Below, in pieces: positions 324-7,228 of a stretch of DNA of 7,244 bases (its first letter is position 1; each line of letters begins with the position of its first letter). The position numbers and the translations under genes were made by a program. Under the pieces are notes generated by a model that made no database searches, was not told where the DNA came from, and was given only the letters and a program-made list of their open reading frames with translations. The DNA is from a bacterium (lineage in GTDB: Bacteria; Chloroflexota; Limnocylindria; Limnocylindrales; Limnocylindraceae). The stretch is from positions 1 through 7,244 of the forward strand of contig RGBZ01000040.1 of assembly GCA_009919365.1 (NCBI GenBank), given 5' to 3'.

Positions 324-352
324 GTGCAACCATGCTAGGCCTGTGGTAATCT
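324..352 (+). promoter_or_regulatory. Promoter P1 (GTGCAA / 17 bp / TAATCT)
   Basis: The -35 box GTGCAA is at 324-329, preceded by CCC. The -10 box TAATCT is at 347-352, preceded by CTGTGG, which gives a TGn extended -10. Predicted transcription starts near 359, leaving a leader of about 21 nt that holds the SD of the gene at 380. Confidence 0.8.
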
Positions 353-379
353 ATAAGGACGAAGGAGACAGGGAAGAAG

Positions 380-754
380 ATGCGAATGAGCAACAACACT
401 GCAGCGAATCTGGACAAGAACGATGTCGTCCATTACCTCATTCAGGACGTGTACACCGAGGAGTTCCTGGTGGCACACGAGGACGACGAGTTCGGTGGAG
501 ACCAGTGGGCACAGCTCGACGTCGACGCAGAGGACATCGGAAGCGCTTCTTACCTCGAGGAGGAGGTCGATCCCGGCGCTCTGTTCTCGTCTCACAGGGA
601 GGCGCTCGAGGTCGCCCAGGTCCTCATGGAGGTCCTCAAGGAGCGATTCCCGGGCGAGGAAGTCGAACTCCAGATCGTGAAGGCGCGGACTGTGACGACC
701 ACGAGTGCTGCAGCGACGTGTGCGACGACTCCTGCGCGGACGGCAACGCTCTGA
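380..754 (+). CDS. Acidic protein with apparent frame switch near its 3' end (124 aa as read)
   Basis: Unknown function. The first 100 or so residues are acidic with a likely C-terminal helix (HREALEVAQVLMEVLKERFP). The start at 380 (MRMSNN) follows GGAG at 363-366 and a second purine-rich run nearer the ATG; an alternative ATG lies at 386. P1 drives it with a short leader. After codon CGG at 686-688 this frame turns into a Thr/Ala-rich tail (TVTTTSAAATCATTPARTAT) with poor third-position GC, whereas the -1 frame becomes strongly GC3-biased and stays open to TGA at 826-828. If reading slips by -1 there, the product is about 149 residues with a Cys-rich, then Lys/Arg-rich tail. A missing base in the assembly would look the same. 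The N-terminal part is confident; the true C terminus is not. Confidence 0.7.
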   Translation: MRMSNNTAANLDKNDVVHYLIQDVYTEEFLVAHEDDEFGGDQWAQLDVDAEDIGSASYLEEEVDPGALFSSHREALEVAQVLMEVLKERFPGEEVELQIVKARTVTTTSAAATCATTPARTATL

Positions 755-828
755 ACGACGACGAGGTCGACAGCGAGCCCCCGCGCCGCGAGCGCTCGAA
801 GAAGCCCTCCTCAAAGAAGCGACGCTGA
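688..828 (+). other. -1 frame continuation: Cys-rich and basic tail
   Basis: Read in the -1 frame relative to the gene at 380, this stretch encodes 46 residues: a cluster DCDDHECCSDVCDDSC (C-x4-CC-x3-C-x3-C) followed by an acidic linker and a basic tail ending SKKPSSKKRR. Third positions are almost all G or C, unlike the overlapping frame, so this is very probably translated. It has no ATG of its own. A GTG at 718 could start a 36-residue peptide, but no good SD precedes it and it would leave 689-717 unexplained. A ribosomal frameshift or a one-base assembly error explains it best. The Cys cluster could bind metal; that is speculative. Confidence 0.6.
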
Positions 829-839
829 CACGACACTGC

Positions 840-870
840 CGGGTCCCGTGAAAAAAGATCGCGGGACCCG
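840..870 (+). terminator. 9-bp hairpin abutting the P2 -35 box
   Basis: The arms CGGGTCCCG (840-848) and CGGGACCCG (862-870) are perfectly complementary. The 13-nt loop contains six A. No T-tract follows, so any termination would be hairpin-only. The last base of the 3' arm is the first base of the P2 -35 box, so folding of upstream RNA and the downstream promoter share sequence. Confidence 0.6.
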
Positions 871-898
871 TGCAATACCTCCCGGTCTGTGGTATTCT
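870..898 (+). promoter_or_regulatory. Promoter P2 (GTGCAA / 17 bp / TATTCT), leaderless
   Basis: The -35 box is at 870-875 and the -10 box TATTCT at 893-898, preceded by TGTGG. The ATG at 905 follows after six bases (AAGACC), so the predicted transcript starts at the initiation codon. Confidence 0.85.
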
Positions 899-904
899 AA
901 GACC

Positions 905-1150
905 ATGGAGAACAACGACAAGATGCCTCAAATCGGCGACTCTGCTCCCCTCTACCTCTGCGGCGACTGGTACGACCACGTCATCATCGAGGTGCACAGC
1001 GCGACCCGCATCGTCGTGGCGCAGGGCTCCACGATCGACACCGCTTTCGGTCCCAAGGAGATCGTCACGCGTCGCCCGAAGTCGGGCCAGTGGGTGGCCC
1101 TGGGCAAGACCCGTCAGCAGGCCGGCTACCACTCGGTCTACGCCCGCTAA
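905..1150 (+). CDS. Small phage protein, probable beta-rich fold (81 aa)
   Basis: The start is set by P2: the ATG lies six bases after the -10 box and no SD is present, so the mRNA should be leaderless. An upstream in-frame ATG at 848 lies inside the hairpin and before the promoter, and was rejected. The protein opens MENNDKMPQIGD and is predicted mostly beta (LYLCGDWYDHVIIEVHSATR, residues 16-35). It ends with VTRRPKSGQWVALGK (54-68) and GYHSVYAR. The pattern VT-x-R-x-x-G-x-W-V followed by GY resembles, from memory, a recurrent small phage protein family of unknown role; I cannot confirm this without a search. It stops with TAA, which runs into an A-tract upstream of P3. Confidence 0.85.
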   Translation: MENNDKMPQIGDSAPLYLCGDWYDHVIIEVHSATRIVVAQGSTIDTAFGPKEIVTRRPKSGQWVALGKTRQQAGYHSVYAR

Positions 1151-1168
1151 AAAAAAGTGAACCACGCT

Positions 1169-1197
1169 GTGCAAGTTCCCGGCGGCCGTGGTATCCT
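1169..1197 (+). promoter_or_regulatory. Promoter P3 (GTGCAA / 17 bp / TATCCT), leadered
   Basis: The -35 box is at 1169-1174 and the -10 box TATCCT at 1192-1197. Unlike most copies, the ATG (1251) lies 53 nt beyond the -10 box. It drives the four-gene unit 1251-2360. Confidence 0.85.
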
Positions 1198-1223
1198 AAT
1201 CAAGTAACGGACAACGAACCAAC
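1188..1223 (+). repeat. Leader block shared by P3 and P6, copy 1
   Basis: These 36 bases match 2769-2804 with a single difference (A at 1198, T at 2779). The block covers GTGGTATCCT of the promoter and 25 identical bases (ATCAAGTAAC...CCAAC) of the 5' leader. The SD regions that follow are not identical, so the conserved part is specific to the early leader. It could be an RNA element or a protein-binding site. Confidence 0.85.
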
Positions 1224-1250
1224 GATCATCGGACTGAAAGGGACAAGACA

Positions 1251-6471: not shown

Positions 6472-6624
6472 GTGACCTTCCTCGGACGGCACGTTCTTTC
6501 TCTCATGACTGATGCATACGAGGGATGGCGTCCGGCAAACAAGGAGTGGACAAAGAAGCTTGATAGGCGCATGGAGAAGCTTGCCAAGCTGCTAGACAGC
6601 CCTGACGTGCTGGTTGGATTCTGA
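6472..6624 (+). CDS. Small basic helical protein, start uncertain (50 aa)
   Basis: The frame before stop 6622-6624 is open from 6238, but everything before about 6445 is a shadow of the gene at 6161. The GTG at 6472 follows AGGGGAG (6457-6463) after eight bases and gives MTFLGRHVLSLMTDAYEGWR plus a Lys/Arg-rich helix (NKEWTKKLDRRMEKLAKLLD). The first ATG is 6505, which would leave 39 residues. P15 should start RNA near 6460, leaving only a dozen bases before GTG. The third positions look less GC-rich than in the neighbours (AAGCTT, GATAGG, TTGGATTC), which hints at a different origin or a decaying gene. Function is unknown; the amphipathic helix is the only visible feature. Confidence 0.6.
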   Translation: MTFLGRHVLSLMTDAYEGWRPANKEWTKKLDRRMEKLAKLLDSPDVLVGF

Positions 6625-6630
6625 CTTCCA

Positions 6631-6659
6631 GTGCAATCGACGGGCGCCTGAGGTACAAG
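6631..6659 (+). promoter_or_regulatory. Promoter P16 (GTGCAA / 17 bp / TACAAG), leaderless
   Basis: The -35 box is at 6631-6636 and the -10 box TACAAG at 6654-6659, preceded by CTGAGG. ATG 6666 follows after six bases (GGAGGC). The spacer TCGACGGGCGCCTGAGG differs from that of P15 at one base and of P17 at two. Confidence 0.82.
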
Positions 6660-6665
6660 GGAGGC

Positions 6666-6920
6666 ATGGACAGCATGCGATCGATGACGAGGAACAACGG
6701 CCTCCTCCCTGCCAGTCGGGTGACCGGCTACCGGGGACACGCCCGTGAGCTCAGCCACCGTGAGCTCATCAGCAGGTTCGAGCCCCTGCACGGCACCGTG
6801 ATCGAGCTTCAGGAGCGGTACGGAACCCAGGGTCCGCTGTGTGCCCTGGTCCTGCTGGACGGCAGTCGGGGCACCGGCCTGTGGCACTGCTCGGACCTCG
6901 CACACGAGCGGTCGGAGTGA
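6666..6920 (+). CDS. Small protein of unknown function, barrel-like C-terminal half (84 aa)
   Basis: The ATG lies six bases after the P16 -10 box; GGAG in that gap would be upstream of the RNA start. A second in-frame ATG lies at 6675. The N terminus is basic and polar (MDSMRSMTRNNGLLPASRVT), followed by a helix-forming HARELSHRELISRFEP. The second half reads HGTVIELQERYGTQGPLCAL, then VLLDGSRGTGLWHCSDL: G-x-V, a second strand, L-D-G, then W-x-C-x-x-L. This resembles an SH3-like small barrel, as in the gene at 4670, but the two are not obviously homologous. No membrane segment is present. It stops ten bases before P17. Confidence 0.8.
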   Translation: MDSMRSMTRNNGLLPASRVTGYRGHARELSHRELISRFEPLHGTVIELQERYGTQGPLCALVLLDGSRGTGLWHCSDLAHERSE

Positions 6921-6930
6921 GGCTGCCCGG

Positions 6931-6959
6931 GTGCAATCGACGTGCGCCTGGGGTATAAC
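6931..6959 (+). promoter_or_regulatory. Promoter P17 (GTGCAA / 17 bp / TATAAC), leaderless
   Basis: The -35 box is at 6931-6936 and the -10 box TATAAC at 6954-6959, preceded by CTGGGG. ATG 6966 follows after AGGACC. The spacer matches that of P15 at 16 of 17 positions. Confidence 0.85.
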
Positions 6960-6965
6960 AGGACC

Positions 6966-7160
6966 ATGACGACCTACACGACAGCTGAGATGCTCGAGCT
7001 CGTGGCCCTCCACTTTCGGGACGCCTTCTCCGAGCGCGACTACACCAAGTGGGACTGGAGCCTGCCGCTCTACCTGATCGAGGGCGTGTCCGGCTGGACC
7101 GAGGGCCGGCTGGCTCGCCTGGTGGACTTCTATCACAACGGCCCGCGCAGCTGCCGCTGA
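6966..7160 (+). CDS. Small protein of unknown function (64 aa)
   Basis: Leaderless start behind P17 (MTTYTTAEMLELVALHFRDA); the in-frame extension to 6942 lies within the promoter. The protein looks helical: AEMLELVALHFRDAFSERD, then an aromatic stretch (YTKWDWSLPLYLIEGVSGW) and a last helix (TEGRLARLVDFYHN). It is Trp- and Tyr-rich for its size and ends GPRSCR. No family is recognised. The stop is five bases before the near-perfect hairpin at 7166-7197, which may end its transcript. Confidence 0.82.
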   Translation: MTTYTTAEMLELVALHFRDAFSERDYTKWDWSLPLYLIEGVSGWTEGRLARLVDFYHNGPRSCR

Positions 7161-7165
7161 CCTCA

Positions 7166-7197
7166 GGGAGGGGCATCCCTAAAAAGTTGCCCCTCCC
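7166..7197 (+). terminator. GC-rich hairpin abutting P18
   Basis: GGGAGGGGCA (7166-7175) pairs perfectly with TGCCCCTCCC (7188-7197) around a 12-nt loop with five A. Two bases (AC) separate it from the P18 -35 box. Both stem and spacing match the hairpin at 5545-5573. Confidence 0.72.
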
Positions 7198-7199
7198 AC

Positions 7200-7228
7200 G
7201 TGCAAAACACCCACACCTGAGGTAGATT
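7200..7228 (+). promoter_or_regulatory. Promoter P18 (GTGCAA / 17 bp / TAGATT), leaderless
   Basis: The -35 box is at 7200-7205 and the -10 box TAGATT at 7223-7228, preceded by CTGAGG. ATG 7235 follows after AGGACC. Confidence 0.85.

What the first reader, a model, noticed from the sequence alone, without database searches (positions are those of the whole stretch)
324..7228. Eighteen copies of one promoter cassette in 7.2 kb, about one per gene
GTGCAA, 17 bp, then a -10 box beginning TA occurs at 324, 870, 1169, 2377, 2645, 2750, 3706, 4005, 4297, 4634, 4875, 5207, 5576, 6126, 6425, 6631, 6931 and 7200 (start of the -35 box). The -35 box is exact in 17 of 18 and the spacer is 17 bp in 17 of 18. 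GTGCAA is not the housekeeping TTGACA box, and CCC often precedes it, so an alternative or phage-modified sigma specificity, or an activator site, is likely. Coordinated expression of a whole small-gene array from near-identical single-gene promoters resembles in spirit the start-associated repeats of some mycobacteriophages, but the sequence and the position relative to the start differ.
Basis: partly seen in the sequence, partly recalled or inferred. Interest (0 to 1): 0.88.

Follow-up and report, generated by a model that had tools for sequence, protein, structure and literature searches.

The report
Phage promoters fused to start codons
In a bacterial virus, the same unusual promoter sits a fixed 35 letters before the start codon of gene after gene, so each message probably begins at its own start codon; related giant viruses use the same promoter and carry a sigma factor cut into two separate genes that may be what reads it.

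Summary
In detail: all 18 sites exist; 16 are exact matches where 0.05 are expected by chance. They are promoters of a large-phage lineage. Three things were added. (1) At 12 of 18 the ATG begins 35 nt (11 sites) or 36 nt (1 site) after the first base of GTGCAA, where transcription should start, so most of these mRNAs are predicted to be leaderless. (2) Relatives with a 62-75% identical RecA-like protein, in contigs up to 284 kb, use GTG(C/T)AA-N17-TATAAT; there the start point is a Y-R-T initiator followed by a Shine-Dalgarno leader. ATG at +1 therefore looks derived. (3) Relatives carry a primary-type sigma that stops after region 4.1 (no 4.2 found by pattern in 80 of 80 loci) and a separate small protein with region 4.2 only, with an altered recognition helix. 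I propose that this split sigma reads the promoter. Neither half is on the window or on its 97%-identical 54.6 kb relative G001, which ends about 1.1-2.5 kb before the place where most compared relatives have the 4.2 gene. Promoter near certain; leaderless likely; split sigma as reader plausible, untested.

The parts
324..358 (+). promoter (leadered): GTGCAA-N17-TAATCT; predicted +1 A at 359; drives ORF 380-754
870..904 (+). promoter (leaderless): predicted +1 = A of ATG 905; ORF 905-1150
1169..1203 (+). promoter (leadered): predicted +1 G at 1204 (GTAACGG); ORF 1251-1574
2377..2411 (+). promoter (leaderless): ORF 2412-2639
2645..2680 (+). cassette with 18-nt spacer and no gene of its own; perhaps decayed or regulatory
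2686..2745 (+). 24-nt direct repeats at 12-nt steps (ATTAGCGTGAGAAATAGTGT...) between cassettes 2645 and 2750; possible operator
2750..2784 (+). promoter (leadered): predicted +1 G at 2785; drives the RecA/KaiC-like ATPase gene 75 nt from the box. A GTGYAA promoter stands 81-102 nt upstream of the same gene in 8 of 11 relatives with the whole gene; two more have ATGTAA (63 and 91 nt), one (L080) none
2825..3574 (+). RecA/KaiC-like P-loop ATPase (phrog_26214), the marker gene used to find relatives
3706..3740 (+). promoter (leaderless, GTGCAC variant): ORF 3741-3986
4005..4039 (+). promoter (leadered, predicted +1 G at 4040): ORF 4069-4278; homology with G001 breaks at its -10 box (4029)
4297..4331 (+). 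promoter (leaderless): ORF 4332-4616
4634..4669 (+). promoter, ATG at offset 36 (one-base leader or leaderless): ORF 4670-4855
4875..4909 (+). promoter (leaderless): ORF 4910-5188
5207..5241 (+). promoter (leaderless): ORF 5242-5538
5576..5610 (+). promoter (leaderless): ORF 5611-5790
6126..6160 (+). promoter (leaderless): ORF 6161-6445
6425..6459 (+). promoter apparently cut from its original gene: homology with G001 (where ATG is at offset 35) breaks at 6450; here probably a 12-nt leader to GTG 6472 (ORF 6472-6624, inferred)
6631..6665 (+). promoter (leaderless): ORF 6666-6920
6931..6965 (+). promoter (leaderless): ORF 6966-7160
7200..7234 (+). promoter (leaderless): ORF from 7235, runs off the window (the same cassette in G001 at 27531 leads a 147-aa ORF)

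Best explanation
The sites are promoters of one class, used by a lineage of large bacteriophages. Host core RNA polymerase is steered to them through a -35 box with core TG(C/T)AA and a TATAAT-like -10 box, and starts 35 nt after the first base of GTGCAA, at a purine. In the window lineage ATG has come to sit at that base for most small genes, so each is read as a leaderless message; in relatives, and for a minority of window genes, the same start point is followed by a Shine-Dalgarno leader. The -35 box is read by a phage sigma made of two polypeptides: one with regions 1.2 to 4.1 (reads the -10), and a small protein with region 4.2 only and an altered recognition helix (reads the -35). Shown by sequence: promoter anatomy, fixed distance, conservation in relatives, split sigma genes in relatives. 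Inferred: the actual start sites, that the two proteins work together, that they read this box, and that the window phage has them.
For: Chance excluded: 16 exact vs 0.05; 9 exact GTGCAA-N12-TGNGGTA-N10-ATG vs 0.00. G001 (about 97% DNA identity over 1-700, 694-4029 and 4257-6450): 26 exact sites, all on one strand; matrix scan 28 forward, 4 reverse, 0-2 in each of 10 shuffles; ATG at offset 35 or 36 in 17 of 27 sites, 18 of 28 with exact site 30339, which that list had left out. Thirteen relatives of the RecA-like gene: GTGYAA-N17-TATWAT in 11 of 13 records, 99 sites vs 1 for the reversed pattern. At 94 relative sites: pyrimidine at offset 34 in 77%, purine at 35 in 95%, T at 36 in 69%, ATG at 35 in 2; Shine-Dalgarno-like words at offsets 36-62 in 75 of 94, against 8 and 16 of 94 in two stretches further down. 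So the start point is marked independently of ATG. Purine at 35 also in 16 of 17 window sites and 26 of 27 G001 sites. Pair search: GTGCAA-N17-TATAAT top in G008 (13 vs 0.09), GTGTAA-N17-TATAAT top in G011 (13 vs 0.05). Sigma: no 4.2 in 80 of 80 loci by pattern search, 79 ending within 60 residues of the 4.1 motif; PHROG_351 covered 472-692 by L107 sigma and 693-722 by L102 small protein; helix TRMRICQIE vs TRERIRQIE of Thermus SigA. In 50 records with the truncated sigma the pattern is in 39 (131 sites, 19.5/Mb; reversed 1), against 4 sites in 3 of 28 other records (1.9/Mb; reversed 2). G001 is largely collinear with relatives up to near the 4.2 gene.
Against: No 5' ends, expression or biochemistry. 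Neither half of the sigma is on the window or G001; the link rests on synteny and relatives. In G011 and G059 the 4.2 gene lies about 0.1 kb past the last gene shared with G001; G001 has 415 bp there and no such gene, so it must have the other arrangement or lack it. None of 80 4.2 loci (5-20 kb held) has GTGYAA-N17-TATAAT. Four large records with both halves have no exact GTGYAA-N17-TATAAT site (G023, G027, G059; G085); they show variants: TGTAAA-N18-TATAAT (G023, G027), TTGTAA-N17-TATAAT (G059), GTGAAA-N18-TAGACT (G085). In G027 and G059 other repeats outrank the promoter. So the -35 box varies while the sampled helices stay the same, which weakens a strict helix-to-box match. Of the 39 positive records 17 have one site only. 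Two large records with promoters and truncated sigma (G006, G058) gave no 4.2 hit. Some window -10 boxes are poor (TACAAG, TACAAC, TATGAG). Six of 12 leaderless starts have a GAGG, AGGT, AAGG or GGAG word upstream, possible weak Shine-Dalgarno words if transcription began earlier.
Confidence: 0.64

Rival explanations
1. The promoters are read by the unmodified primary or an alternative host sigma whose -35 preference in this unknown host is TG(C/T)AA; the phage sigma halves serve another promoter class (for example late genes).
For: Spacer, TATAAT and partial extended -10 are ordinary sigma70 features. Host unknown; the GTDB scan gave only weak partial matches. The 4.2 gene lies outside the promoter arm.
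Against: The box differs between phages (GTGCAA, GTGTAA, TTGTAA, TGTAAA), though different hosts could explain that. The motif is about ten times denser in records with the truncated sigma than in 28 others. The phage 4.2 helix differs from SigA at two positions that contact -35 DNA (recalled).
Confidence: 0.22
2. A small phage activator binds GTGCAA next to a weak -10 and recruits host holoenzyme; the stand-alone 4.2 protein is that activator, working with host sigma rather than with the phage sigma.
For: The 4.2 protein is free-standing, with a Cys-rich N-terminal part in 6 of 7. The two genes lie over 100 kb apart in G008 and G011.
Against: The box is at the normal -35 spacing (17 nt), not at -30 as for MotA. 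The truncated sigma lacks just the piece that the small protein supplies.
Confidence: 0.2
3. The ATG-proximal conservation reflects a translation signal (SD-like GAGGT or AGGA next to ATG) on longer transcripts, not leaderless starts.
For: Six of 12 starts have a GAGG, AGGT, AAGG or GGAG word within 18 nt upstream; three more have only AGGA 2 nt from ATG.
Against: Three of 12 have no such word, and AGGA 2 nt before ATG is very close for pairing (general knowledge). The same TGNGGTA occurs at sites whose ATG is 47-89 nt from the box. In relatives the same base is a Y-R-T initiator without ATG.
Confidence: 0.1
4. The cassettes are repeats kept mainly as recombination joints for shuffling genes, with promoter function secondary.
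For: Four homology breaks between window and G001 lie at cassettes: 4029, about 4257-4280, 6450, about 7193-7200; one more (about 694-700) does not.
Against: The boxes are conserved in distant relatives; strand bias and the fixed offset to a Y-R start fit promoters.
Confidence: 0.04

Closest known systems
sigma70-class promoters with extended -10
   Same: Two hexamers, 17-nt spacer, TATAAT -10 in relatives, TG of an extended -10 in 49 of 94 relative sites, Y-R start point 7 nt after the -10.
   Different: -35 core is TG(C/T)AA, not TTGACA; one class repeated before most small genes.
Leaderless transcription units (known from actinobacteria, Deinococcus, archaea; recalled)
   Same: Start codon at the predicted +1; A-rich codons 2-5 (47% A against 17% in the rest).
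   Different: Built from one phage-specific repeated promoter; relatives have leadered versions of it; not confirmed by 5' ends.
Two-subunit sigma factor SigO-RsoA of Bacillus subtilis (PMC8103513, passages read)
   Same: Sigma2 and sigma4 domains on separate proteins.
   Different: Described there as hard to classify; here a primary-type sigma with regions 1.2-4.1 is cut before 4.2, and most 4.2 pieces have an added Cys-rich part.
T4 gp55/gp33 late sigma (PMC11598898, passages read)
   Same: Phage pair that replaces host sigma; G008 has PHROG matches to a portal and a baseplate wedge protein.
   Different: gp55 aligns only weakly (hhalign probability 5%); gp33 was not compared; here a -35 box and an intact 4.2 helix are present.
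Sigma-like subunits of giant-phage RNA polymerases, phiKZ gp68 and AR9 gp226 (PMC7618050, passages read)
   Same: Giant-phage promoter-specificity proteins with a part in the place of sigma region 4.
   Different: Those are permanent subunits of phage-encoded polymerases; here no beta' domain was found in 9 records and the pieces are recognisable sigma70 parts.
Start-associated sequences of cluster K mycobacteriophages (PMC3203893, passages read)
   Same: One conserved element before many small genes.
   Different: [quoted passage not shown] the present element is a promoter 35 nt upstream.

Membership tests
sigma70-class promoter | -35 and -10 boxes at 17 +/- 1 nt | tested here: met
   17 of 18 at 17 nt, one at 18
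sigma70-class promoter | TTGACA-like -35 | tested here: not met
   GTGCAA in 17 of 18; consensus scan for TTGACA/TATAAT finds 1 site, on the other strand, 0.9 expected
sigma70-class promoter | start at a purine about 7 nt after the -10 | tested here: met
   sequence signature only: purine at offset 35 in 16/17 window, 26/27 G001 and 89/94 relative sites
leaderless transcription unit | start codon at the transcription start | tested here: inconclusive
   predicted for 12 of 18 sites; no 5' ends
leaderless transcription unit | no Shine-Dalgarno at a usable distance | tested here: inconclusive
   3 of 12 have none, 3 have only AGGA at 2 nt, 6 have a longer choice of words at 1-5 or 11-12 nt
two-subunit sigma factor | sigma2 and sigma4 parts on separate proteins | tested here: met
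   in relatives only; not seen in G001
two-subunit sigma factor | both proteins needed for transcription | not testable with these tools
   needs biochemistry
T4 middle promoter (MotA) | activator box at -30 in place of a -35 box | tested here: not met
   box lies at -35 with a 17-nt spacer; -30 motif of MotA from PMC11598898
cluster K SAS | SAS consensus at the translation start | not tested
   consensus letters not compared

The most novel reading that the evidence does not exclude
A large clade of uncultured giant phages uses a primary-type sigma factor that is permanently cut before region 4.2. The DNA-reading 4.2 domain is a free small protein, mostly with its own Cys-rich module, so -35 specificity is a detachable part that can drift or be swapped. 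One lineage then turned the conserved purine-T initiator of these promoters into ATG, giving arrays of leaderless messages. The pair may show a stage on the path from an ordinary sigma70 to pairs such as T4 gp55/gp33.
Probability: 0.35. Interest if true: 0.86.

Novelty: new variant of a known kind. Interest (0 to 1): 0.72.

Why it matters
If true, it gives (a) a phage with a dozen or more genes whose start codon is also the transcription start, a natural test set for leaderless translation; (b) leadered and leaderless forms of one promoter that can be compared between relatives; (c) a widespread split sigma70 in giant phages in which -35 recognition is a separate protein, so the question of how region 4.2 sets -35 specificity can be tested with small natural proteins against natural promoter variants (GTGCAA, GTGTAA, TTGTAA, TGTAAA).

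Tried and rejected
Chance repeats: rejected. Whole genome of the window: none held. Near DNA relatives among named phages: none by megablast; RecA-like gene hits there are at 33.9% identity or less in the 20 of 30 listed. PF04542 and PF04545 give nothing on G001; PF00623 nothing in 9 records. The DUF2201-like protein of G001 as marker gave only G001 itself. Promoters near the 4.2 gene: none in 80 loci. The constancy of TRMR(I/V)C in those 80 is partly built in, as it was a search pattern; the 7 found by the Pfam model and G023, G059 are free of that. 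AlphaFold model of the 4.2 protein: mean pLDDT 60, 82-85 over residues 61-80; not searched further. T4 gp55: no convincing match; gp33 was not in the stretches fetched. Frames of 335-358 aa with a 4.2-like match in 7 records (G033 below the cut-off): the one read, G046, has a different helix; not pursued. Three truncated-sigma frames have sub-threshold region 4 matches reaching 4.2 positions (G042, G043: 22-38; G045: 1-45); I read these as chance or remnants, untested. Intrinsic terminators: 1 found, 4.8 expected.

Counting notes. Of 80 sigma loci (best 80 of 251) I searched the records of 50 (cap 50 per call), leaving out 30, mostly shorter or apparent duplicates; some of the 50 are near-duplicates (e.g. 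G052/G053, G046/G047), so they are not independent; G006 and G008 were also among the 13 RecA-like relatives. The 28 comparison records came, so each holds one GTGCAA-TGNGGTA site by selection; 5 of 28 have a sigma region 2 and the two of these that I read (G085, G088) are truncated too; G088 gives 2 of the 4 sites. The 94 relative sites were chosen by GTG(C/T)A(A/T)-N17 and at least 5 of 6 letters of TATAAT. The 27 G001 sites leave out 42613 (ATGCAA) and exact site 30339; the latter has ATG at offset 36 and T at 35. Site 2645 is left out where I write 17 window sites. The loci include duplicates. An earlier count said 12 at exactly 35 nt; the right count is 11 at 35 and 1 at 36. Confidence was lowered from 0.66 to 0.64 on re-checking, because G001's last 415 bp exclude the G011/G059 arrangement and 17 of 39 positive records have one site only.

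Literature: (open-licence PMC only) listed no paper whose title or abstract start describes a split sigma70 in giant phages or this promoter; PMC3203893, PMC5312081, PMC11598898, PMC8103513 and PMC7618050: passages read; all other papers: listing only.

Full report
Observation. The window (7,244 bp, 62.5% GC) carries the 18 cassettes at the stated places. GTGCAA-N17-TA is exact at 16, all on the + strand, against 0.05 expected in dinucleotide shuffles; 3706 has GTGCAC and 2645 an 18-nt spacer. The stricter pattern GTGCAA-N12-TGNGGTA-N10-ATG occurs 9 times with 0.00 expected.

A fixed distance to the start codon. From the first base of GTGCAA to the A of ATG is 35 nt at 870, 2377, 3706, 4297, 4875, 5207, 5576, 6126, 6631, 6931 and 7200, and 36 nt at 4634. 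Counting G as -35, A is +1. That is where a sigma70-type polymerase should begin, 7 nt after the last base of the -10 box (general knowledge). So the mRNAs of these 12 genes are predicted to have no leader. The 11 whole genes among them are 59-98 aa long, and codons 2-5 are A-rich (47% A against 17% in the rest). Four sites (324, 1169, 2750, 4005) precede genes with predicted leaders of 21-47 nt; there offset 35 is A, G, G, G. Site 6425 seems to have lost its gene by recombination, see below.

The same phage type elsewhere. Megablast finds no match among 50,697 named phage records. One IMG/VR contig, IMGVR_UViG_3300032268_001435 (G001, 54,644 bp), aligns at about 97% over 1-700, 694-4029 and 4257-6450 of the window. 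It has 26 exact GTGCAA-N17-TA sites, all on one strand, between 6.3 and 30.4 kb. A matrix built from 17 window sites finds 28 forward and 4 reverse hits above 9 bits, 0-2 in each of ten shuffles. ATG lies at 35 or 36 in 17 of 27 of these, purine at 35 in 26 of 27; exact site 30339, below the matrix threshold, has T at 35 and ATG at 36. G001 has 11 tRNA genes and PrkA/YeaG-like, YeaH-like and SpoVR-like genes (the last two names are recalled).

Gene shuffling at the cassettes. Window and G001 lose homology at 4029 and 6450, in the -10 boxes of cassettes 4005 and 6425, and regain it at about 4257-4280 and about 7193-7200, next to cassettes 4297 and 7200; a fifth break, at about 694-700, is inside a gene. 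In G001 the cassette matching 6425 still has its ATG at 35.

Distant relatives keep the promoter and not the ATG. The RecA/KaiC-like ATPase at 2825-3574 led to 13 relatives at 62-75% identity in contigs up to 284 kb, two of them with part of the gene, besides G001 and two hits at 29%. GTGYAA-N17-TATWAT occurs in 11 of 13 of these records: 99 sites against 1 for the reversed pattern; 3 records have one site each on the other strand (sum mine). Upstream of the ATPase gene itself a GTGYAA promoter stands at 81-102 nt in 8 of 11 relatives with the whole gene, ATGTAA in two more, none in L080. In G008 (267 kb) GTGCAA-N17-TATAAT, and in G011 (284 kb) GTGTAA-N17-TATAAT, is the top pair among all hexamer pairs spaced 12-21 nt (13 vs 0.09 and 13 vs 0.05); in G011 an unrelated pair, CTCTTC-N16-AGTTGT, is almost level. 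Over 94 relative sites the -1 base is a pyrimidine in 77%, the +1 base a purine in 95%, the +2 base T in 69%; ATG at +1 occurs in 2. A Shine-Dalgarno-like word follows at offsets 36-62 in 75 of 94, against 8 and 16 in two stretches further down. Thus the start point is marked independently of any start codon, and ATG at +1 in the window lineage looks derived: R-T-R became A-T-G (inference). TG of an extended -10 is present in 49 of 94; TGG at that place in 6 of 17 window sites. In G008, 13 of 16 sites lie at 138-192 kb, where long ORFs are sparser, and none in the first 80 kb, which holds the portal gene.

A sigma factor in two pieces. None of 9 records has the RNA polymerase beta' domain PF00623. 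Three large relatives have a sigma protein of 230-260 aa; the two scanned have regions 1.2, 2 and 3, and the one compared with solved structures matches E. coli RpoD from 369 to 568 of 613 and stops soon after region 4.1. Seven of 14 records have a separate protein of about 61-103 aa with region 4.2 only. PHROG_351 is covered at 472-692 (500-691) by the first and from 658-693 to 722-725 by the second. The genes lie over 100 kb apart in G008 and G011. A wider scan gave 251 relatives of the first (80 kept) and 187 of the second (80 kept). In 80 of 80 sigma loci a pattern search finds no 4.2 helix in frame or in the flanks; 79 end within 60 residues of the RFG(I/L) motif of 4.1, and the 80th lacks that motif by my pattern. 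Three frames in the Pfam search show sub-threshold matches that reach into 4.2. Compared with Thermus SigA (1ku3), HTLEEVGAYFGVTRERIRQIE reads HTLQQIGDIFGVTRMRICQIE: E to M and R to C in the recognition helix. That these two positions contact -35 DNA is recalled, not from a call.

Link between split sigma and promoter. In 50 records with the truncated sigma the pattern GTGYAA-N17-TATAAT is in 39, 131 sites in 6.73 Mb, reversed pattern 1, though 17 of the 39 have one site only; in 28 other viral records it is in 3, 4 sites in 2.07 Mb, reversed pattern 2. In 38 of the 39 all sites are on the strand of the sigma gene (tally; exception G031); as these phages may code almost wholly on one strand (G008), this shows mainly that the sites follow the genes. 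Four large records with both halves lack the exact pattern and have variants: TGTAAA-N18-TATAAT in G023 (14 vs 0.10) and G027 (7), TTGTAA-N17-TATAAT in G059 (10), GTGAAA-N18-TAGACT in G085 (7 vs 0.01). Stand-alone 4.2 proteins (frames of 74-140 aa) are over the Pfam cut-off in 9 of the 50 (G008, G023, G027, G035, G041, G044, G047, G059, G062), all contigs of 176 kb or more; of the 10 contigs over 200 kb, 8 have one. That fits a gene lying far from the sigma gene. Against the link: 0 of 80 4.2 loci have the exact pattern, and G006 and G058 have promoters and truncated sigma but no 4.2 hit.

Does the window phage have it? G001's right end (helicase, YeaH-, SpoVR- and PrkA-like genes and small genes) is largely collinear with G008, G011, G023, G059 and loci L111-L115, L117-L120 and L161; not every gene has a match in each, and g62 lies elsewhere in G011. 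In seven of these loci the 4.2 gene lies 1.5-1.8 kb past the last shared gene, in G008 1.6 kb and in G023 2.9 kb; in L113, the one looked into, a tubulin/FtsZ-like gene (PF00091, below cut-off) lies between. In G011 and G059 it lies about 0.1 kb past. G001 ends 415 bp past that gene with no 4.2 in sight, so it excludes the last arrangement; under the commoner one the 4.2 gene is expected 1.1-2.5 kb outside the known sequence. This is a prediction.

Mechanism, with weights. That these are promoters: 0.97. That transcription starts at or within a base of ATG for the 12 genes: 0.85. That the phage's split sigma reads the -35 box: about 0.55-0.6, against unmodified host sigma or an activator role with host sigma.

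Novelty. Two-subunit sigma factors are known (SigO-RsoA, PMC8103513; T4 gp55/gp33, PMC11598898), sigma-like subunits of giant-phage polymerases too (PMC7618050), and so are leaderless mRNAs; the AR9 paper says phage transcripts are often leaderless (PMC5312081, passage). New here, as far as my searches in an open-licence library show (calls listed under Tried and rejected), are the class of promoter, its array form with ATG at +1, the leadered and leaderless forms side by side, and a primary-type sigma cut before 4.2 across a large phage group.

Noticed in passing
window 2686-2745: Four overlapping 24-nt direct repeats at 12-nt steps (ATTAGCGTGAGAAATAGTGT) between two cassettes, upstream of the RecA-like gene; similar sequence in G001 piece L047 1557-1619.
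   Followed up: partly
window 1812-2225: Protein with a short match to the ribosomal L7/L12 C-terminal domain (PF00542, E 5.7e-6), just over the Pfam cut-off.
   Followed up: no
window 3986, 4278, 4616, 4857, 5188 and others: A-runs (GAAAAAAGTT) at or just after stop codons; a run of at least four A lies within 35 nt upstream of the box at 12 of 17 sites; may be UP-element-like.
   Followed up: no
G001 (L070-L072): GC content falls from about 62% in the promoter arm to 37-44% past 36 kb, with PrkA-, YeaH- and SpoVR-like genes on the low-GC side.
   Followed up: partly
L113 10276-11529 (minus): Tubulin/FtsZ-like gene (PF00091, E 1.2e-6, below cut-off) next to the 4.2 gene; may be a cytoskeletal system like those of other giant phages.
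   Followed up: partly
G024, G033, G034, G038, G040, G046, G047: Frames of 335-358 aa with a sigma region 4.2-like match in records that also hold a truncated sigma; the one read (G046) has a different helix.
   Followed up: no
A1 (small 4.2 proteins): Six of seven have a Cys-rich N-terminal part that may bind zinc (inference).
   Followed up: no
G011, G027, G059: Other strongly enriched spaced pairs, e.g. CTCTTC-N16-AGTTGT in G011, ATGAAA-N11-ACAACT in G027, TAATTC-N9-GTCTTT in G059, of unknown meaning; possibly further promoter or terminator classes.
   Followed up: no
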